Source of the DNA: Phytophthora sp. 'mugwort'
Lineage: Eukaryota > Oomycota > Peronosporomycetes > Peronosporales > Peronosporaceae
Length of the DNA stretch: 64,000 bases
Assembly: GCA_033558025.1 (NCBI GenBank)
Contig: JAUCEF010000014.1
Coordinates: 2,046,001 to 2,110,000 of the forward strand
Reading direction: 5' to 3'
Below are positions 21,464 to 63,870 of this stretch, piece after piece. The notes beneath the pieces were generated by a model. It was not told the DNA's origin, searched no databases, and worked only from the letters and a program-made list of their open reading frames with translations. The position numbers and the translations under genes are program-made. Within the stretch, counting starts at the first letter, position 1. Each line of letters begins with the position of its first letter.

Positions 21464-23121
21464 TAGCTTCTTGGTCAAAGACGCCCGAGCGCCAGGGAGA
21501 CCAGGCTCACCCAAGAGGACGAAGAGAAACCTCGTTCTCCGGTCAAGAACTTGACGCTTGCTGAGGCAACTGCCCGCGTCAAGGCTGCTAAGGCTGCAGC
21601 AACCTCGGAAGTCAGCAGTAAGCGTCGGGCTACTTTCCTGTCTCCAATCCGTGTAGGGTATGGGGCCATCACGTTTACGAACAAGGATCTCTTCAGCTCT
21701 TCTCCCGACGAGGAGGCAGAGGGCCAAGTCGACCGAGAGATCTCCAACGATCTCGACGGCCAGCAGTCGGAGTACCAGGCTGCCCGTCATAAGGGAGTGC
21801 GGGCCCCGGCGACCCGGTCGCCTGTGAAGTATTCTTCACCTGTCCATGGGGGACCACCTTACCTCTCGGGTACTTCCCTCCTGATGAGTCCTACGGAGCC
21901 GACGCCTACATAGGTCAGCTCCAGCCGCCTCGCGTGCTTGTTGGCGGGCGCTCTTCTCAGGGCGCTTATGAGCGCCACCTGGTGGCCAAGCAGCCACTGT
22001 TGCAAAATGTGAGCATCGCTCGGTGCGTGCTCCTGGCACCGCACAACATCCCGCTCAAGGGGGCCACGAGCCGGCGAAAGAAGTCAGATCTCCGGTCGGG
22101 ACTGCGATCTGTGTGGGACTATCCAGACGTGATGCCCCAATACTGTTGCTCTTTCCAAGAGGCCGAAGCCGTCTTTGGAAGTCGGTAGCTACGCGCTGCT
22201 CACAAGGACAACTCGAGGTTCCGGCAGGATCTCACCCTGGAGGCCATCCTTGATCTTCGAGATCTGCGTATTGAGTTTGCCCATGTGGTAGGCAAACGGC
22301 AGATCTCTCGAGAACTGCAGAAATATTCCGCTTCTAGCGCTCATGATTAGAGCGGGTATGGTCTTGGCTCTACGACCACGCCCCGTTCGGGCAAGAAAGC
22401 CCGAGCTATTTACGAAGCCCCCGCTGATTCTGTTCCCAGATCGCGACAACCTTCGGACAGTCAGCCTGGAGCCGTTCGTACGGCTCCCAGGAGCATTCAG
22501 CTTCCGAGTACCCCCTCCACTTCACGCGGAGCTGGCTCTTCCCGTGAACGCGCCGCTTCTGGAGCGCACGCTCCACGTGGTAGTGGGTCTCCCCATTACG
22601 ATCGAGGAGAGCGGGTAGTGCCCTCGAACGAGTACGCGTATGAGGCGCCACCCCTCCGGTCCAGCTCAGGACCTGGTGTGCCGCCTTTGGCTCCACCTCG
22701 GGTCGTTGAAGACGCCACTCTTCGTTGTCGAGTCCGTGCGCTTGGACTTGGTGTGGGCGGGGCTTCCGCCGCTCTGGCCGCGAGCGCTGGGGTCCTTGGG
22801 CCGATTCGTGACGACATTAATCGTCTGGTCGATGACTTGTCGCCCCTTGAAGGACGGGTCGACCGTCGTACAAATGACGTGGATGAGATCTTCCAACGTC
22901 TCGATGCCTTTTGGGCGTCCATGGACCGAGTCCAACAGGAGTTGTCTCTCATCCGGGACCTCCTGCGGCCTGAGTCCCAGGCGGGAGTACCTCCTGCGTA
23001 CTCCCAGCCGTATCAGTATGGTTCATACTCGGCGTATGCAGCCGGTGTTCCTTGGTATGGAGCCCCTTCCGCGGTCCCGCAAGGGACTTGGGTTTCTGGG
23101 CCTGGGCGCGCAGAGAGATGA
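21464..23121 (+). pseudogene. Long ORF antisense to the 3' end of the - strand gypsy element
   Basis: A protein-like + strand reading frame runs about 550 codons, broken by one frame change near 21,830 and in-frame TAG codons near 22,186 and 22,348. The parts are a Pro/Ser-rich start (KPRSPVKNLTLAEATARVKA), a segment reading YFPPDESYGADAYIGQLQPP, a helical segment (LTLEAILDLRDLRIEFAHVV), a Ser/Gly/Arg-rich stretch, a coiled coil (IRDDINRLVDDLSPLEGRVD) and a Tyr-rich tail. From 22,351 to 23,121 it is uninterrupted. It overlaps, on the opposite strand, the chromodomain (22,406-22,696) and the integrase-chromodomain linker. A similar antisense ORF occurs in the second chromovirus (59,243-60,713). 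No known domain recognised. Confidence 0.5.
22406..22696 (-). pseudogene. Chromodomain of element G1
   Basis: The - strand frame reads HYHVERALQKRR, then QLRVKWRGYSEAECSWEPYE and a helix (CPKVVAIWEQ). These are the aromatic-cage Tyr and Trp positions and the helix of a chromodomain, which directs chromovirus integration towards modified histones. It is separated from the integrase by a roughly 460 bp linker, in which the sense frame is broken and the antisense frame is open. Confidence 0.8.
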
Positions 23122-31892: not shown

Positions 31893-32455
31893 CTTGTGGT
31901 ATTGCCGCACACACAAATTCGTCATACGTGGTTACTTAGGCAAGAATCACAACAATAGCCGAGCTAGTCGGCCCTTGTTGGCCTGCGCTGGGTTGTCCCT
32001 AGCGTTCGGCCCTTCCGGGACAGTGGTGGCTCGCTTCCGCCGAGACCAAGTGCCCCAAGCCAGTCAATACACGAGGTCAGCTGAGCTGACTGTCTCTGGC
32101 TTAGATATCCGTGTCCTCCGCTAAAGGGCGGACGACAGCGCGTAAGCGCTGTGACGGGTCGCCGAGAGCAAAGGCTTCTCGGCTAGAAGTGTTACGGTAC
32201 CCGGGCTGTACGGCGTACCGGCCCGCCGAGTTCGGCAGGACTTGTTCCTTTGCGGTTGGCGAGACACGCCCTTCCACGGGTCGACCTACTTCTCTTGGCT
32301 CTACTAGTCAACACCCTACATGCTATGCCTCTCGGGTGTCAACGGTAACCATAATCCAGCACGTGCAGGGACTTATCGGATAGTGTATACTTGTCTTGGA
32401 CTTGGGAAAAGTTCCTCTGTTAATATTTTATCTCCCGACCCCCAAGGAGCTCCTC
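31893..32455 (+). repeat. LTR-like repeat, + orientation (inverted partner at 40,240-40,812)
   Basis: The stretch starts TGTGGTATTGCCGCACAC and ends near CCCCAAGGAGCTCCTCCTAA. The whole length recurs in reverse complement at 40,240-40,812 with an estimated 85-90% identity. Both copies translate to the same spurious peptides, which confirms the match. The arms bracket about 7.8 kb of nested retroelement sequence. Confidence 0.75.
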
Positions 32456-39239: not shown

Positions 39240-40238
39240 CGAGCAGGTTCACCCTGTAAGCAAAAGGGATGGATGAATATCTCCGAATCGGAAGTCGACT
39301 GAGAGGCGTGCTCACCAGTGGCGATGGGGCCGATCGATATTCGCTGATCGGTATACATGTTCCGACATCCTCGATCTGTCAGATGGTATTCATGTTCTGA
39401 CCTACGTGATCTGGCAGATCGGGCCGATCGATGTTGGTAGAACGACATACGCGTTCGGGCACCCGCGATCTGGCAGATCGGGATTCGATCAGCAATCATC
39501 ATTAGGGATGTGCAAGAGTGAAGACGGTACGTGTTGAGCGGTTGAAGAAGGGCAAGATTCAGGAGATTCAGGTGGTAGAGATCATGCTCAGGATGGGAAA
39601 AAATAAGACCAGAAAAGGATAAACAACAATCAGACTCGAATTTGCATTGGACAACTTAGGCGGTTTTCAAATACCGTGGGATGGGAACTACGTTGGCCCC
39701 CCAAGGTGTCGACCAGTCCAAGGTAGCAGATCTAGTGTCGTGGTGAGCGGATCGTATATTGCCCCCCCCCCACGCTAGCGAACTTCTGCTTAAGCGCATA
39801 CCTCGATCGATCGGCATTCAATGCTTGGCCGACGATCGGTTCGACTCTCAACTTGCAAGAGCCCACTAAAGGAAGCGGCAAGCAACTCAAAAAAAGGAAA
39901 GGAACAACGCCACATGGCGATTTCGGCCTCGGATCAAGTACAGGCCCCCGATCGAAGGTCGGCTACCTCAGCTCGGGACTAATAACGGCAGCAGAGCGAA
40001 GACTTCCGCGCTGCTCCACGTCCCCACATGCCACCAGAACGTTCACGACTTTACATCGCTGCATCCTTCGGAGTCCCAAGAGAGTAGATCCAGCCCACCG
40101 ACGGGTACAGAAGGTGAGACTAAGTTCAGCCGATTCACAGATTATCGGAGAACCCCCTCCGTTAGTCGGTGTGTGGGCGCAGTTGGTAAGCGGATCGGAT
40201 CTTAATCATATTTTGACCAATCCCGCTACACCACAACA
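39240..40238 (-). repeat. Leader-like module, copy 1 (also at 60,741-61,580)
   Basis: Read on the - strand from 40,238 this about 1 kb stretch begins TGTGGTGTAGCGGGATTGGT, includes CGGGACTCCGAAGG-type and CGATCGGGGGCCTG blocks, and ends in GATCTGCCAGATCG-rich sequence. The same order occurs on the + strand from 60,741. It abuts the end of the LTR-like repeat, so it could be the untranslated leader of that element family. A C-run (about 39,763-39,772) interrupts it. Confidence 0.7.
40168..40233 (+). other. tRNA-like sequence at the LTR/leader junction
   Basis: The 66 nt from GGTGTGTGGGCGCAGTTGGT to CCCGCTACACCA resembles a tRNA. It has an A-box-like TGGGCGCAGTTGG, a degenerate B-box (TTTTGACCAATCCC), partly complementary ends (GGTGTG with CTACACC) and a terminal CCA. 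On the - strand it starts TGGTGTAGCGGGATT immediately after the LTR-like repeat, where a tRNA primer-binding site belongs. A second copy is at 60,745-60,810 on the - strand. It could be a full-length tRNA copy in place of an 18-nt site, or a SINE head. Confidence 0.45.
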
Positions 40239-40239
40239 A

Positions 40240-40812
40240 TAGAGGAGTCCCTTGGGGGCTCCCAGGAGATAAAATACTACCAGAGTAACTTTCCCAAGCC
40301 CAAGAAGTGAAGTGTACACTATCCGGTAAGTCCCTGCACGTGCTGGGTTATGGCTACCACTGACACCCGAGAGGCATAGCATGTAGGGTGTTGACTGGTA
40401 GAGCCAAGAGAAGTAGGTCGACCCGTGGAAGGGCGTGTCTCGCCAACCGCAAAGGAACAAGTCCTGCCGAACTCGGCGGGCCGGTACGCCGTACAGCCCG
40501 GGTACCGTAACACTTCTAGCCGAGAAGCCTTTGCTCTCGGCGACCCGTCACAGCGCTTACGCGCTGTCGTCCGCCCTTTAGCGGAGGACACGGATATCTA
40601 AGCCAGAGACAGTCAGCTCAGCTGACCTCGTGTATTGACTGGCTTGGGGCACTTGGTCTCGGCGGAAGCGAGACACTACTGTCCCGGAAGGGCCGAACCG
40701 CTAGGGACAACCCAGCGCAGGCCAACAAGGGCCGACTAGCTCGGCTATTGTTGTTATTCTTGCCTAAGTAACCACGTATGATGATTTTGTGTGTGCTGCA
40801 ATACCACAAACA
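40240..40812 (-). repeat. LTR-like repeat, - orientation (inverted partner of 31,893-32,455)
   Basis: On the - strand the sequence begins TGTGGTATTGCAGCACAC at 40,802 and ends near GGGACTCCTCTATTGTTG at 40,238. It is collinear with the copy at 31,893-32,455. Here it is directly followed by the tRNA-like/leader module, which supports an LTR reading for this copy. The + copy lacks that module at its end. Confidence 0.75.
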
Positions 40813-57233: not shown

Positions 57234-57956
57234 TTGTGGTGTTCTGACCACCAAAAGGCCTTCGACTCCGTGAAGGCGAGCCTGTCCGAAACTCCGATTC
57301 TCATGCTTCCGGACGACTCGAAGCCCTTTCATTTGGTATGTGACGCAAGTGATTTCGCTATTGGTTGTGCCCTCATGAATTCCGAGGATGAGAGCTGCGA
57401 ACGCGTCGTGAGCTTCCAGTCACGACAGATGAAACCGGCTGAGAAGAATTATCCCGTTCACGACTAGGAGCTCCTCGCCATACGCTACGCTCTAATCAAA
57501 TTTAGGGTGCATCTGCTCGGCGAGCAGATGTTCGCAATCTACACGGACCACCCTTCACTGCGGGCTGCAGTCAAGAGCCCGCATCTGTCGCAACGCATGG
57601 CTCGTTGGCTTCTGTTTTTCGCCGAATACAATTTCGTCGTTCACTACAAGCCCGGCAAGAACAACATTCATGCCGACGCGCTGTCCCACCGTCCGGATTA
57701 TGATCCACGACGTGATTTTGGTCACCAAGCACTTGATGACGACGCCGAAGACGAGGACTACGCTCTCTGTGCTGAGATTGGAGTCAACACGACGATATCA
57801 GTTCCGACCTGCTTGCTTCGCGAGCAGATCGTCGCGGCATATGCTGATGATTCGTTCTACGCGAATATCATTGCAACACCTCCGCAATCCAGCAACTGCG
57901 ACTGCCAAAGCCCTTACTGGCCCGACCCGCGCTCCCATCAAGCGGTACCAGCTTGA
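57234..57956 (+). pseudogene. RNase H and connection of element G2
   Basis: Conserved blocks: HLVCDASDFAIGCALMNSED (first Asp), CERVVSFQSRQMKPAEKNY, PVHD-stop-ELLAIRYALIKF, FAIYTDHPSLRAAVKS and NNIHADALSHRPDYD (last Asp). A single in-frame stop separates the two halves. The final codons diverge into an AT/acidic linker before the integrase zinc domain. Confidence 0.8.
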
Positions 57957-59290
57957 CGGTCCGCTCCTGTCATACACGATGGATACTTTCGATTGTCCGT
58001 GTGTCGTCATGCCAGCGGATGACGACCTTCGTGCCCGTCTCGTGCATGAGTATCACGTCGGAGGTCATCTCAGTCGCGAGAAGATATTCGGCGCACTGCC
58101 GCGTGATTACTTCTGGCCGCGCATGTACAAGTGGATTCGCAAATGGGTACGGTCCTCCGAAACGTGTCAGCGCGTAAAGCCGGCACCGTCGTCGCAAGCT
58201 CCGCTGCATCCGTTGCCAATTGCAACGGAAGCGTGGAAGTCCGTCAGCATGGACTTCATCTTTGGGCTTCCTGCGGATGACCAAGACCGCACGGGCGTCT
58301 TGGTCCTCGTCGGCCGCTTCAGCAAAATGGTTCACTTCGCTCCCGTCGCGGCTCAAAGAGACCGCGACGATTTTCCTGGACACGATAATTCGGCACCATG
58401 GGCTGCCGGAATCCATCGTTTCCGACCGTGACCCGCGTTTCACGTCGGCCTTTTGAACCGGCTGTTCGAACGCCTTGGTACCCGGTTGTTAAAGTCCACG
58501 GCGGCCCATCCGGAGACGGATGGGCAAACGGAACGCCTGAATCGAGTTCTCGAAGATGTTTTGCAAAGTTATGCGACTTCATTCGCGTCGTGGTCGTCGT
58601 TCCTACAACTCGCAGAATTCGCTATCGGTTCACGCGTTAACAGTGTTGACGTCACGCTCGTAAGCAACGCGCGGCACCCGCGCGTTCCCGCAGTTCTGCT
58701 CTGAACTCGGCCGCTGATACTACGGGCTCCACTCTTGGTGGGGGGGGACCTGGCGGTGTGTCAGTTATGGAACCGTCACTCGTGGTCATTGAGGCCAAAG
58801 AACCTGACGGCGCGTCGGCAATGCGGCCGACGCTCAACGTGTCAGCTTCTGCAATAACTCTATCATGTTCCGCCCGTGTCTCCCGTGTCCAACCTCTCAC
58901 CAAAGAGTTGGTTCACCAATTGATTCCGTCGCGGTAACAAATTATATGTTGCATCACCAGACCGTCACGCGATACGTGCGTGACGCGCTGTATGCAGCAG
59001 TCGACAAGCATAAAGAAAATGCAGATCGTCGAGGTCAGAAGAACATGCACAACTTCCGACAAGGCGAACGCATCTTATTGTCTACTGCGAGCATTTAAGC
59101 AGCCTCGGTCACGAACTTGGGTGCAAACAAGTTAGCATCAAGATTTATTGGACCATTCAAGATTATCAAGGTTATAGGCGATGCCTACACCTGGACATCC
59201 CTACTGCGATGCGGCTGCATCCGACGTTCTACGTCGGTCGTCTCAAGCTGTACCATCCCGCGGCAATCTCGGACGTTCAACCGCCGACGC
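57950..59290 (+). pseudogene. Integrase of element G2
   Basis: Zinc-binding H2C2 domain: VHEYHVGGHLSREKIFG and SSETCQRVKPAPSSQAP. Catalytic core: VSMDFIFGLPADDQDR (Asp), IIRHHGLPESIVSDRDPRFT (Asp), HPETDGQTERLNRVLEDVL (Glu). C-terminal domain: RRGQKNMHNFRQGERILLST, SRFIGPFKIIKVIGDAYT and HPTFYVGRLKLYHPA. The blocks fall in different frames. A G-run at about 58,740 lies in the Gly-rich segment after the core. Confidence 0.8.
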
Positions 59291-60713
59291 CGGTTCATAC
59301 TCAGAGAGTCCGAGCCGACGGCGCTGTCGTCGACTCAAGCCGATTCCCTGCTGCGCGCGCACCGACTCGTTCTGCTGCGGTCGTCCAAACGCCTCGGTCT
59401 CCAGACCGAACAGCCGCTCGACAAGAGCCTGCTGCTCGCGCCGAGGCCTCTCCGCAGCAGACGTTGCCGCGTTCGCGTCTCGCGAGCGCTTTTTCGCCAT
59501 CAAACGAGCGTCCCGCAACTCGTTCGTCATCTGCTCGGCCTCAGCTTGAAGCAAGCGATACTGCTCAGCGGTCATCATGCCCTCAGGAGGCGCGCCGCCG
59601 GTCTCAGTTGCCGGCGCCCGTCCGTCGTGATGTCCGCCACCGCTGATATACTCGTCGGGCGCTCGGAGATGGGTGGCCGAGTGTATTGTTGATCACGATA
59701 CTCGAAAGGCGCAGACGCCGGGTGGCGGCGCGAGCTCTGCGCCGACACGGCCGGAGAAACATTATCGCGTCCGCTGGCTCGGTTATTCGCTAGCGCAGGA
59801 TACGTGGGAACCGAGGCGCCGCCTTCTCGAGGATGTTCCGGATGTGGTAGCGTACTACGAGTCCACGCTGACACATTTGTCCGCGTGCGTGAGCCTCCCA
59901 CACTCGATCCAACATCTCGCGAACGGCTGCGGCTCCGAATGTGCTGTCGGGTCCGCGTCCGGTAGCCACGCGCACTTGGCTCTCGGTCATGCTGCCAGTC
60001 ACGATCCCGCGAGCGTCCGCGAGATCGAGCGGACGCATCCCAGCTACGATAATAGTGGATATATATGTCATGCGGCTATGGCTATGCCCACGACGCGGTG
60101 GGCTGCGAGTGCGGCTGCGCTCGCAGCGAGCCGTGCTACGCCGTTCCGTCGCCTGCCGAAGCTGGTGCACGACTACTCGTAGCAACCAATCCAACGCCGC
60201 TCGTGACCCGCCAGCGGCCACTGAAGCACCTGCTCTTCCCACTCCGCTCGGGTTGGCCGGCGTACGTGGATGCAATGGAAGCACCCCTCACGAAGGTGCA
60301 CATAGCACAAGCGCCACGAGTCCGCCGACATCATGCAAACGCGACTCCGCAGGTCGCCAATAGAGTGTTCCCCATGTGTCATCTCACGCGCTTCGAGCCA
60401 TGACGTGAAAGATTCCCTTCACGTCGCGCCGCATCCAGCGCCTGATGAAGGCACACCAGGAGCGTTGCGGGGAGTCGTGTGAGAAGGCGTGGCTCGTCGC
60501 CTTGCTCTTTGTTGCGCGGTACCGTCGAAAGTACTGCTTAATCTCATCTAACGGCTCTGGCTCATCAGCGCCCTCGAGGCTGTACAACCGCCACGGCTTT
60601 AAGTCGGCGTCCATTACGTGAGGAACGGGACCAGTCTTGTCGCCGGCTCCAGGCGTGTCGTCGTAGTCGTCGACTTCAAACGTGTCGCGAGGTCTTGACA
60701 TGATTGTTGTCAC
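59243..60713 (-). pseudogene. Long ORF antisense to the 3' end of element G2
   Basis: On the - strand a protein-like reading runs about 490 codons in several frames. It starts at an ATG near 60,700 (MSRPRDTFEVDDYDDTPGAG, then DEIKQYFRRYRATKSKATSH) and continues WRLCYVHLREGCFHCIHVRR, MRPLDLADARGIVTGSMTES and GPDSTFGAAAVREMLDRVWE. After the part opposite the chromodomain it reads APDEYISGGGHHDGRAPATE and a coiled coil (TAEQYRLLQAEAEQMTNELR). It ends opposite the GRLK motif of integrase. This is the same arrangement as the + strand ORF opposite G1, including a P-x-x-EY motif, a Gly/Pro-rich stretch, then a coiled coil. It is degraded by frameshifts. No known domain recognised. Confidence 0.5.
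59680..59880 (+). pseudogene. Chromodomain of element G2
   Basis: The frame reads ECIVDHDTRKAQTPGGGASS, then KHYRVRWLGYSLAQDTWEPR and a helix (LLEDVPDVVAYYEST). The aromatic residues and the WEP turn are intact, so the fold is recognisable. The Gly/Ala/Ser insertion after DHDTRKA is longer than in G1. Confidence 0.8.
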
Positions 60714-60740: not shown

Positions 60741-61580
60741 AGTGTGGTGTAGCGGGATCGGTCAAAATATGATTAAAGCCCGATCCGCTTACCAACTGCG
60801 CCCACACACCGACTAACGGAGCGGGTTATCCGATGATCCGTGATCAGCTGAACTTGGTCTCACTTTATGTACCCGTCAGTGGGCTGGATCTGCTCTCTTG
60901 GGACTCGAAGGATGCAGCAATGTAAAGCCTTGAACGTCCTGGCGGGCGTGGGGACGTGGAGCAGCACGGAAGCCTTCGCTCTGCTGCCGTTATTGGTTCC
61001 GATCTGAGGTAGTCGACCTTCGATCGGGGGCCTGGACTTGATGCGAGGCCGAGGTTGCCGTGTGGCGTTGTTCCTTTCTTTTCCTTGAGTTGCTTGTGCT
61101 TCCTTAAGCGGGATCTTGCGAGTTAAGAGTCGAGGCGCGAGTCGGCCAAGCACGGAATGCCGACCGCTCGAGGTATGCGCTTGAGTAGAAGTTCTCTAGC
61201 GTGGGGGAGGGTCGGCCAGTATCCGATCCGATCCTCTCACCGCGACGCTTGATCTGCTACCTTGGGCTAGTTGATACTTCGGAGGGCCAATGAGATCCCT
61301 TCCAGCGGCACTTAAAAACGCCTAAGTAGTCCATGTAAATTCGAGTCTGATTGTTATTTATCCTTTTCTGGTCCTATTTTCCCATCCTGAACCCTATCCT
61401 GTACCACCTGAATCTCCTGAACCTCGTCTTTCTTGAACCACTCAACACGTACCGCCTTCGCGCTTGCACATCCCTGAGGATGATTGCTGATCGAATCTCG
61501 ATCTGCCAGATCGTGGATGTCCGAACGCGTATGTCGGTCTGACAGATCAAGGATGTCGGAACCTGTATGCCGATCGGCAA
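60741..61580 (+). repeat. Leader-like module, copy 2 (also at 39,240-40,238)
   Basis: Starts TGTGGTGTAGCGGGATCGGT and is collinear with the - strand copy at 40,238-39,240. It includes the tRNA-like stretch (60,745-60,810, - strand sense), the CTCTCTTGGGACTCGAAGGA block, and the final GATCTGCCAGATCG motifs. Unlike copy 1 there is no recognisable LTR before it. It runs on into a tandem repeat. Confidence 0.7.
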
Positions 61581-61619
61581 ATACCGACCGACCCGATCCG
61601 CTTGATCTCGACCGCAAGA

Positions 61620-62060
61620 TAGATCCGATCTACCCGATCTCTGACGGCGGGTTGTCGGCCGACCTGTGGACGCCGGATCAGCCCGATCCTCCGAACCTTG
61701 AACAACTGGTCGGCCGATCTTCCCACCTGTATCGCCGGATCGACCCGATCTGCCAGATCCCGCGGTCGATCGGTCCGATCTCGACTGCAAGATCGATGTG
61801 ATCTGCCCGATCTCGGACGGCGCGGAGTAGGCCGATCTGTAACCGCCGGATCGGCCTGATCCTTCGAGCCTTGAATACCAGATCGCCCGGATTTGTTAAC
61901 CTTGACTGCCGGATCGGCCCGATCTGCCAGATCACATTATCGATCGGCTCGGTTTCCACTGCAAGATCGATCCGACCTGCCTGATCTCGGACGGCGAGGT
62001 GTAGGCCGATCGGTGGACGTCGGAGCAGCCCGATCTGCCAACCCGCGGACCCCAGATCCG
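61620..62060. repeat. About 173-bp tandem repeat, GATC-rich, 2.5 copies
   Basis: Anchor blocks GATCTC(T/G)GACGGCG recur at 61,637, 61,809 and 61,983, giving periods of 172 and 174 bp. Each full unit also contains CGCCGGATCG(A/G)CC and CCCGATCTGCCAGATC, and ends ACTGCAAGATCGAT. The third unit breaks off at about 62,045. Open frames across it on both strands are products of the repeat and not genes. Confidence 0.8.
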
Positions 62061-62061
62061 C

Positions 62062-62587
62062 ACGATCGGGGTCCGACCGAGGTCAAACAGGGGTTAGATC
62101 CGGTGTCACCGCTTGCTAGTCCTGATCTCTTGCATCCCCCTCGATCCGAGTTCCGAATATCCATCCGAACACCGATTGATAGGGTTATCACAGTATAACA
62201 GATCTGTGTTGGGTGATAGCCCGACCCTGGTTTCCTTTCTCGTCGTCGAAGCATCCCCTTGTACCCCAGATTAAGTCGAACGTCGCCCCGCCTTTACCTC
62301 GTATCTCGATCCGGCTCGATCGCCCCCTCTCTTCACAGCTGGGGCCGCCTTTCTCACCGATCTGGCCAGTCCTTTGGGATCTGATATTCTTGATTGACGC
62401 TTCTCCACAGCAGTATCATCGTTGGTTGACGCTTCTCCATAGCAGTTTCGTCGCTCCAATGGGATGATGTGTGGTGACTTCTGAGTGAGATTCGCGTATC
62501 GGCGCATCCACTTACTGCGCGTTGCAGGAACGGTATGTTACGGTACGCGCTTACAATACGGTAAGCGCAACTTAAAGAGGGGGGTGA
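62062..62587. other. Gap ending in a polypurine tract
   Basis: No gene recognised. The last bases (AAAGAGGGGGGTGA, 62,574-62,587) form a polypurine run immediately before TGTAACGGACC, the arrangement of a polypurine tract and 3' LTR. Confidence 0.4.
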
Positions 62588-62815
62588 TGTAACGGACCAT
62601 CCTGTTACATAACTAAATAGGTTATTACATATTACACAAGTAGGCAGACATCCTCCAGATTGGCTGATAAGTAGGGAGCCAGACCCATCACAGCCAATCA
62701 GGAGTCGATCCACATGAGCAGAAGGTCGGGCCATTTTGCCCCGGACTTAAAAAAAACAGTTGAATTTACGTGTTTATTAACACGCTTCCTACAGCTAATA
62801 ATGTAAGCTAAATAA
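62588..62815 (+). repeat. LTR-like start with terminal palindrome
   Basis: Begins TGTAACGGACCATCCTGTTACA, a near-palindrome (TGTAAC...GTTACA) shared in form with the LTR starts at 28,526 and 57,011. The following sequence differs from those LTRs, so it is another family. The right end is not clear; a T/A-rich run with AAAAAAAACAG occurs near 62,750. Confidence 0.45.
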
Positions 62816-63870
62816 TGGTTGACCTCGTCCCGTTACACCAACTGGACCTTAGATATTCAGAATCCGTTCGTGAACGAACAGCCCGATACCATCGAGGAGG
62901 TGCTGCTGCCTGCCCCATTCATACCAGAGGAGGGGGAGGTAATGAGATCTCCGGCGAGCGCTCCGGCTGCTGCAAGCATCGACTCGGCCATCGAAACTTG
63001 TGAAGGCGTGGAACATGCTGCGATTGAGCATGTAGTCCAACTTATTTAACCGAAGGATTGTATGGACATGGAACTGAGCAACTCCGATGACGACGTGCTC
63101 TCCTGCGGCTATCGACGGCTTCAGCCACATGAGATACGAATTCCGAGAAATGATCACACCGGAGAGGTCTTCGACGTGTACATGGCAGTCGACGCCGCCG
63201 CAGCTACCGGATCCGCCAGCATGCCGCCCAATCACCAAAGCGGGGTAATTGCTAGACCTGGTGAGGCCTACAACCCCACAATTGTTTGGGATATTTTGGT
63301 CGTCCTGGATCGGATATGAGAAGCATTACGAAGCATACCTCGTGCAATGGTGTCATAAGGAGAAACTACTCTGCACCGCGTGGGTGTGGGCGACTACTCT
63401 TATGAAGATGGCTTGTCAAAGGAGATGTTGCGTATTGACCTGTGGAAAGGCAAGTACCATCACCGCACCTACGCCGAGTTTGACAAGAAATTCCCGTAAA
63501 CATATACGGCATTTGCGGACAGCAAATGTTTCTTCGAGGCAATGAGGATTGCGTGTCTTGTCGTCGGTAATACCGATCTTGTGCCGCTATCTATCATCAA
63601 GGTGTTTGAAGAAAAAAAAAGGTAGTGGGACGGCAGCCGTGGGTGTGTCAAAGGAAGGAATGTCGAACGAAGACATCAAGTCCTTCCTGCACTTCTTACG
63701 GAGCGGCAGCCCCACTCGCCTGCAACGTGTTTGCAATGAACATGGCAGCAAGTCGATCATCGGGTTGGAGGCCCTTGATAATCACGATAGGTAGGGTGTT
63801 TATGTTGTGGGGACTTCAAGCAAGCGCAGAATCAAACATTGCTTCGTTTTAAATAAGGATCGTACTGCAG
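62815..63870 (+). pseudogene. Chromodomain-like and OTU-protease-like coding debris
   Basis: Frames in series on the + strand encode an acidic N-terminal piece (PFIPEEGEVMRSPASAPA; MDMELSNSDDDVLSCGYRRL), a chromodomain-like stretch (GYEKHYEAYLVQWCHKEKLL), LRIDLWKGKYHHRTYAEFDK, and then ADSKCFFEAMRIACLVVGNT, which fits the D-x-x-C box of OTU-type cysteine proteases. DIKSFLHFLRSGSPTRLQRV follows. At least three frame changes and an A-run slip (about 63,612-63,621) break it. It reads like a gene carried by a large mobile element. The His of an OTU triad would lie beyond the broken end and is not seen. The call is by motif only. Confidence 0.4.

What the first reader, a model, noticed from the sequence alone, without database searches (positions are those of the whole stretch)
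59243..60713. Second chromovirus (G2) has the same antisense arrangement
Element G2, on the opposite strand and 35 kb away, also carries a roughly 1.5 kb antisense reading. It ends opposite the GRLK motif of integrase, with a P-x-x-EY motif, a Gly/Pro-rich stretch and a coiled coil in the same order as in G1. Two divergent copies with the same layout make chance much less likely. The ORF starts in a sensible ATG context with an acidic N-terminus, so it could be a true gene of the element (an accessory or gag-like protein).
Basis: partly seen in the sequence, partly recalled or inferred. Interest (0 to 1): 0.75.

Follow-up and report, generated by a model that had tools for sequence, protein, structure and literature searches.

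The report
Antisense gene opposite retrotransposon chromodomain
The window holds a decayed copy of a gene that a jumping element of water moulds carries backwards, on the strand opposite its own integrase and chromodomain; better-preserved copies and relatives in Phytophthora and Peronospora show that the backward gene makes a conserved protein of unknown function.

Summary
The antisense reading is real but broken: in the window (59243-60701, minus strand) it is split over three frames. It is a decayed copy of a true gene. The same genome (unnamed, 86 Mb) has relatives (66-68% DNA identity where they align) in which 2 of 4 copies keep it as one open frame of 431 codons, ending beside the integrase GRLK codons and running opposite the linker, chromodomain and sense tail. 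A profile search finds 85 proteins, in ten named Phytophthora and three Peronospora species and unnamed sources. Six-frame substitution counts show a see-saw: the antisense frame is constrained over its N-domain and coiled coil, the sense frame over the chromodomain, where the antisense protein is an unconstrained RS/Pro-rich linker. Shuffles that keep the sense protein never open the antisense frame (0 of 5000). The protein has a helical N-domain with four conserved cysteines, an RS-rich stretch and a long coiled coil; no significant Pfam or fold match. Likely role, inferred: nuclear regulatory accessory protein. Known kind: antisense extra ORFs of plant Retand/Grande elements and HBZ; new are host group, overlap with pol, and protein family.

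The parts
59243..60701 (-). decayed antisense gene of element G2 (ATG 60699-60701, stop 59243-59245), split over three frames
60176..60701 (-). antisense part coding the conserved N-terminal helical domain (in two overlapping open pieces)
   Evidence: (6e-44 and 1e-41)
59578..60075 (-). antisense part coding the RS/Pro-rich low-complexity linker, opposite the chromodomain
   Evidence: 4e-8; layout
59246..59578 (-). antisense part coding the coiled coil and C-terminal tail, opposite the sense linker
   Evidence: (1e-23 for 59246-59692)
59679..59861 (+). sense chromodomain of G2 (Pfam PF00385, 4.9e-9)
59236..59247 (+). GRLK codons at the end of the sense integrase C-terminal domain
   Evidence: read directly
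58018..58182 (+). sense integrase H2C2 zinc-binding domain of G2 (PF17921)
57513..57629 (+). sense RNase H remnant of G2 (PF17917)
60744..62440 (.). nested insertion absent from 10 of 13 other copies, in which both flanking blocks are adjacent (the other 3 do not show both blocks)
62441..62838 (.). 3' end of element G2, probably its 3' LTR, displaced by the nested insertion
   Evidence: shared end in related copies; LTR status inferred
22351..23118 (+). antisense open stretch of element G1 (separate protein family, same layout)
22430..22582 (-). sense chromodomain of element G1 (PF00385, 2.1e-11)

Best explanation
G2 is a decayed copy of a chromodomain-bearing Ty3/Gypsy retrotransposon of an oomycete. 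This lineage carries a second, antisense gene opposite the end of pol. Shown by sequence: the gene begins a short way inside the 3' LTR, runs back over the sense C-terminal tail, chromodomain and linker, and stops beside the integrase GRLK motif. It encodes about 430 residues: a helical N-domain with four conserved Cys, an RS-rich disordered stretch and a long coiled coil (fold predicted). It has been kept by purifying selection, and homologues occur in Phytophthora and Peronospora. The two overlapping genes share the DNA by a see-saw: each strand's folded domain lies opposite the other strand's disordered linker. Inferred: a transcript started in or near the 3' LTR makes the protein. The protein forms oligomers through the coiled coil, goes to the nucleus and binds nucleic acid through its RS-rich stretch. 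There it regulates the element, for example the balance, export or splicing of its RNA or its LTR transcription, as HBZ and Rev-type proteins do for retroviruses.
For: Open 431-codon antisense frame with no stop in 2 of 4 copies of a related own-genome family; a third has one stop and the fourth a frame break. 67 matches in 34 own-genome places; 27 of 34 have a chromodomain match within 1.5 kb, and in all 27 one lies on the opposite strand (one search scored 150 of 152 candidates, so counts are lower bounds). 85 proteins in a profile search, in 10 named Phytophthora and 3 Peronospora species and unnamed sources. 12 of the 86 G2-type proteins retrieved run into the other antisense frame opposite the chromodomain, so the arrangement holds in P. 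fragariae, rubi, sojae, megakarya and idaei. dN/dS in the antisense frame 0.16-0.32 in the single-coding part (7 copies), 0.40-0.55 (6) and 0.35-0.47 (5) in overlapping parts, each against one reference copy. Pooled six-frame pN/pS: antisense frame 0.46, 0.60, 2.63, 0.71 along its length; pol frame 1.38, 1.07, 0.33, 1.09. Sense-protein-preserving shuffles: 8.2 stops expected in this antisense frame, 0 observed, 0 of 5000 as low. Domain layout from the model; conserved Cys in 30/31, 31/31, 27/31 and 30/31 sequences; 55% R+S in residues 181-240.
Against: No transcript or peptide evidence was available. A canonical oomycete initiator lies 17 nt before the ATG only in the related family, not near the ATG of the six G2 copies scanned. 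No domain or fold match supports any particular biochemical function. Seven of 34 antisense places have no chromodomain match nearby and nine chromodomain places no antisense match. Copies share ancestry, so the selection figures are not independent. Nuclear location, nucleic-acid binding and regulation are inferred from composition and analogy only.
Confidence: 0.55

Rival explanations
1. Shadow ORF: the antisense frame is open and looks conserved only because the sense pol strand is conserved and GC-rich.
For: The stretch lies opposite pol sequence, and another antisense frame opposite the chromodomain does look conserved for just that reason (frame a2).
Against: The antisense frame is most constrained where the sense frame is not (pN/pS 0.46 against 1.38; 0.71 against 1.09) and least where the sense frame is (2.63 against 0.33). 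The first 104 codons lie beyond the sense stop. 0 of 5000 sense-preserving shuffles are open.
Confidence: 0.02
2. The protein is a structural or packaging partner (a second Gag or nucleocapsid-like protein) made from the antisense strand.
For: A helical domain followed by an Arg-rich disordered stretch and an oligomerising coil resembles a capsid/nucleocapsid order.
Against: The related element has its own sense Gag-like region with a CCHC motif (by eye) and a protease; no gag Pfam hit and no capsid fold match for the antisense protein (a missing fold match does not exclude it).
Confidence: 0.15
3. The protein acts on the integration step, for example by binding or masking the chromodomain or integrase that its own strand overlaps.
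For: The gene lies with a chromodomain on the opposite strand in 27 of 34 own-genome places; long coiled coil.
Against: No direct evidence; overlap in DNA does not imply interaction of the proteins.
Confidence: 0.13
4. The antisense RNA, not the protein, is what matters (double-stranded RNA, small RNAs).
For: In P. infestans small RNAs map to both strands of two abundant Gypsy elements (passages of PMC3522703).
Against: Selection is on the amino-acid sequence, which an RNA-only role does not explain.
Confidence: 0.04
5. A host gene transduced by the element, with a host-like function, rather than a regulator of the element.
For: Extra ORFs of retroelements can arise by gene capture (passages of PMC7264820).
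Against: All 27 placed copies with a chromodomain nearby keep the antisense orientation; the family is found in many species; the genomic context of the homologues in other species could not be seen, so a host homologue is not excluded.
Confidence: 0.08

Closest known systems
Antisense additional ORFs (aORF-3R) of plant Tat-type Ty3/Gypsy elements: Retand (TRP28 domain), maize Grande gene23, RIRE2
   Same: Antisense gene between integrase and 3' LTR, conserved across species, function unknown; Grande protein nuclear (passages of PMC11963269 and PMC7264820).
   Different: There the ORFs are described in a 2.9-6.6 kb region between pol and the LTR (Retand) and mostly carry TRP28; here the gene overlaps the tail, chromodomain and linker of pol by about 1 kb, has no TRP28 or other significant Pfam hit, and the element has a chromodomain and an oomycete host.
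HTLV-1 HBZ and related retroviral antisense proteins
   Same: Antisense, starting near the 3' LTR, overlapping sense genes, with a C-terminal coiled coil; HBZ is nuclear and important in the virus life cycle (passage; rest recalled).
   Different: No bZIP hit here; unrelated sequence; expression not shown.
Chronos chromodomain Gypsy elements of oomycetes
   Same: Oomycete Ty3/Gypsy with a captured chromodomain (passages of PMC5348765).
   Different: Chronos carries an extra plant/archaeal-type RNase H; none was found in the pol pieces searched. The word antisense does not occur in that paper's main text.
Antisense protein family of element G1 (window 22351-23118; 150 scored own-genome matches of 496 candidates; homologues in Phytophthora and Aphanomyces)
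   Same: Same position, same reading register against the sense frame, same order: N-part, Pro-rich stretch opposite the chromodomain, coiled coil opposite the linker (by eye).
   Different: No detectable sequence homology.

Membership tests
Ty3/Gypsy LTR retrotransposon | protease, RT, RNase H and integrase in Gypsy order, two LTRs and a short target-site duplication | tested here: met
   Related element: protease, RVT_1, RNase H, H2C2, rve, SH3, Chromo; 284-bp LTRs 97.9% identical and a 5-bp duplication read from the flanks. G2 itself keeps only remnants.
Chromodomain-bearing Gypsy element | chromodomain after integrase | tested here: met
   PF00385 in G2, related element and G1.
Chromovirus clade in the strict sense | RT phylogeny inside the chromovirus clade | not tested
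   No reference RT set was used; other stramenopile chromodomain Gypsy elements fall outside the clade (passage of PMC12477816).
Chronos | additional plant/archaeal-type RNase H | tested here: not met
   Only the Gypsy RT_RNaseH models hit in the pieces of the related element that were searched; G2's own pol is too incomplete to test.
Plant antisense aORF (Retand/Grande) proteins | TRP28 (PF04195) domain | tested here: not met
   Pfam scans of seven (some fragments) and of six proteins gave no such hit.
HBZ-like bZIP proteins | bZIP domain | tested here: not met
Gag proteins | Gag capsid domain or CCHC knuckle in the antisense protein | tested here: inconclusive
   No Pfam hit and no Foldseek match, but a missing fold match does not exclude it.

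The most novel reading that the evidence does not exclude
Oomycete chromodomain Gypsy elements as a class carry a protein gene embedded antisense in the 3' end of pol. It is used by at least two lineages with unrelated or extremely diverged proteins that took up the same site, the same reading register and the same layout. The chromodomain and its flanking linkers would then be a recurrent bed for antisense genes, and the proteins a convergent class of regulators like HBZ.
Probability: 0.35. Interest if true: 0.85.

Novelty: new variant of a known kind. Interest (0 to 1): 0.7.

Why it matters
Antisense accessory genes are known in a few retroviruses and in some plant elements whose extra ORF is described after pol. 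Here a conserved antisense gene shares about 1 kb of DNA with pol itself, including the chromodomain, in a third major group of hosts. The see-saw of constraint is a clear natural example of how two strands can both be coding. If the protein regulates the element, it extends HBZ-like antisense control to LTR retrotransposons of oomycetes, whose genomes can be largely made of such elements. It also suggests that many 'hypothetical proteins' of Phytophthora and Peronospora are retroelement genes.

Tried and rejected

Rows left out: one search used 7 of 14 G2 copies for the N-part and 5 for the C-part, those with long tblastn pieces; searches used 10 of 14 copies, the four partial ones left out; one search was given 14 copies and 13 gave matches. 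The protein searches scored only the candidates sharing most words where there were too many (7995, 7991). The structure alignment took 63 of 86 G2-type proteins. A first shuffle counted the gene's own stop as one stop; one search repeats it without that stop.

Full report
What was checked. The window is a stretch of contig C14 of an unnamed 86.26-Mb genome. All named homologues of the antisense protein are oomycete, so the host is very probably an oomycete of the Phytophthora/Peronospora group (inference). Around 57.2-60.2 kb on the plus strand lie remnants of a Ty3/Gypsy pol gene: RNase H, the integrase zinc domain and a chromodomain. Directly from the sequence, it starts at an ATG (60699-60701) and stops at 59243-59245, opposite the GRLK codons (59236-59247), but in between it changes frame and meets stops. 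A nested insertion, absent from 10 of 13 other copies (the other three do not show both flanks), separates its start from the element's 3' end.

Better copies in the same genome. A DNA search gave 25 matches: the window itself, 13 other places at 85-89% identity, four more distant ones at 66-68% over the parts that align, and a short one at 70%; some places gave more than one match. The four distant copies (L015-L018) were fetched. Two of the four have the whole reading as one open frame of 431 codons; the third has one stop and the fourth a frame break. One element of this group has 284-bp LTRs that are 97.9% identical, flanked by a 5-bp duplication read from the printed ends. Its antisense ATG lies about 127 bp inside the 3' LTR (from coordinates). 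In it the sense frame runs through integrase, linker, chromodomain and a tail, and overlaps the antisense frame by about 980 bp. The antisense protein's residues 1-104 lie beyond the sense stop, about 105-215 opposite the tail, 215-304 opposite the chromodomain region, and the coiled coil opposite the linker.

Distribution. The open antisense protein has 67 matches, which I group into 34 places of the genome. In 27 of 34 a chromodomain match lies within 1.5 kb, and in all 27 one lies on the opposite strand; two of these are an inverted pair, so they also see a same-strand neighbour. Seven antisense places have no chromodomain match nearby and nine chromodomain places no antisense match (counts are lower bounds). 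In other organisms a first search found 21 proteins and a profile search 85: Phytophthora fragariae, rubi, infestans, sojae, megakarya, idaei, ramorum, capsici, nicotianae and fragariaefolia, Peronospora destructor, matthiolae and farinosa, and some unnamed sources. Those with a name are hypothetical, unnamed or uncharacterised; a few also bear odd automatic names. Twelve of the 86 G2-type proteins retrieved run into the other antisense frame opposite the chromodomain (none of the 24 G1-type ones did). This shows that the arrangement holds in P. fragariae, rubi, sojae, megakarya and idaei.

Is it a gene or a shadow? Three tests. First, Nei-Gojobori dN/dS in the antisense frame between one open copy of the distant group and G2 copies is 0.16-0.32 in the single-coding part (7 copies), 0.40-0.55 in the overlap after it (6 copies) and 0.35-0.47 in the C-part (5 copies). 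Second, changes by codon position along the gene, pooled over 10 of 14 G2 copies, are antisense-like in residues 1-180 and 316-432, even in 181-225, and sense-like in 226-315. In all six frames, pN/pS is 0.46, 0.60, 2.63 and 0.71 for the antisense frame and 1.38, 1.07, 0.33 and 1.09 for the pol frame in residues 1-104, 105-180, 226-315 and 316-431. In the sense frame, dN/dS where dS is finite is 0.09-0.44 for the chromodomain, 0.37-0.88 for the linker and 0.29-1.51 for the tail (13 of 14 copies gave matches, some values undefined because dS is saturated). So each strand is constrained where the other is free. Third, shuffling synonymous codons over the 326-codon overlap while keeping the sense protein gives 8.2 stops on average in this antisense frame, against 0 seen, and 0 of 5000 shuffles reach 0. 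The antisense frame with the fewest expected stops is another one (6.0). Limits: shuffles do not keep dinucleotides, and the copies share ancestry, so they are not independent.

The protein. AlphaFold2 on the P. fragariae homologue with 63 sequences gives a helical N-domain (about residues 27-180, ten-residue blocks of pLDDT 55-93), a disordered middle (184-315 below 50) and one long helix (325-384, blocks 78-97); overall pTM is only 0.36. Four cysteines in the N-domain are conserved (30/31, 31/31, 27/31 and 30/31), so a zinc site is possible (inference). Residues 181-240 of the related copy are 55% Arg+Ser. Pfam, NCBIfam and PDB sequence searches give nothing significant; the weak rows are mostly coiled-coil models. 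Fold searches give nothing, which does not prove a new fold.

How it most likely works. Inferred, not shown: transcription from in or near the 3' LTR, a nuclear RS-type nucleic-acid-binding oligomer, and regulation of the element. The related family has an oomycete initiator 17 nt before the ATG (motif form in passages of PMC3599244), but none of six G2 copies scanned has one within 300 nt. Gag is not missing from the element: the related copy has a sense Gag-like region with a CCHC motif, interrupted by a stop in that copy (by eye), and a protease.

G1 against G2. They do not, as far as can be seen: no profile hit above threshold in the G1 region, BLASTP E 5.4, profile comparison probability 0.2% and 0.3%. 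Yet G1 also has an antisense protein family opposite its chromodomain, with 150 scored own-genome matches out of 496 candidates and 24 homologues in Phytophthora and Aphanomyces. It is in the same reading register against the sense frame (worked out by hand from coordinates; one in three by chance). Selection on it could not be shown from 10 own-genome copies. Two lineages with one layout and unalignable proteins is the most interesting open point.

What is known. Antisense ORFs after pol are described for plant Retand, Grande and RIRE2 elements. In Retand they mostly encode TRP28 and lie in a 2.9-6.6 kb region between pol and the LTR (passages of PMC11963269; of PMC7264820). HBZ is the retroviral parallel. 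The 2017 paper on oomycete elements with chromodomains does not use the word antisense in its main text (PMC5348765, passages). Papers on bdelloid rotifer and Ectocarpus elements describe other extra genes (passages of PMC5408684, and PMC12477816). Seven searches of the open library found no description of this gene. Of the papers I saw search listings, and passages of seven; none was read in full.

Verdict. A real, decayed antisense gene; new variant of a known kind; function unknown but testable. My probability that it is a gene is about 0.95; the 0.55 given for the best explanation is for gene and regulatory mechanism together.

Noticed in passing
window 60744-62440: Nested 1.7-kb insertion inside element G2; parts of it recur inverted at 39439-40235, so it is itself probably a repeat such as a solo LTR. 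It contains three degenerate tandem copies of 160 nt (61552-62058).
   Followed up: partly
window 22351-23118 and L027-L037: G1-type antisense protein family is very abundant in the genome (150 matches scored of 496 candidates), with a homologue 46% identical over 93% of the query annotated in Aphanomyces stellatus, a distant oomycete; horizontal transfer or contamination is possible.
   Followed up: partly
proteins P0028, P0036, P0040-P0044 (Phytophthora cactorum and palmivora): G1-type antisense proteins carry the database name 'ATP-binding cassette (ABC) Superfamily' although they match this retroelement family; probably a propagated misannotation.
   Followed up: no
window 32004-32397 and 40305-40698: A 394-nt inverted pair 97% complementary, about 7.9 kb apart, continued by a second pair (31894-32019 and 40684-40809): another repeat arrangement in the window.
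   Followed up: no
C7:1841001-1842399 of G000: Two antisense/chromodomain fragments in inverted orientation about 0.7 kb apart.
   Followed up: no
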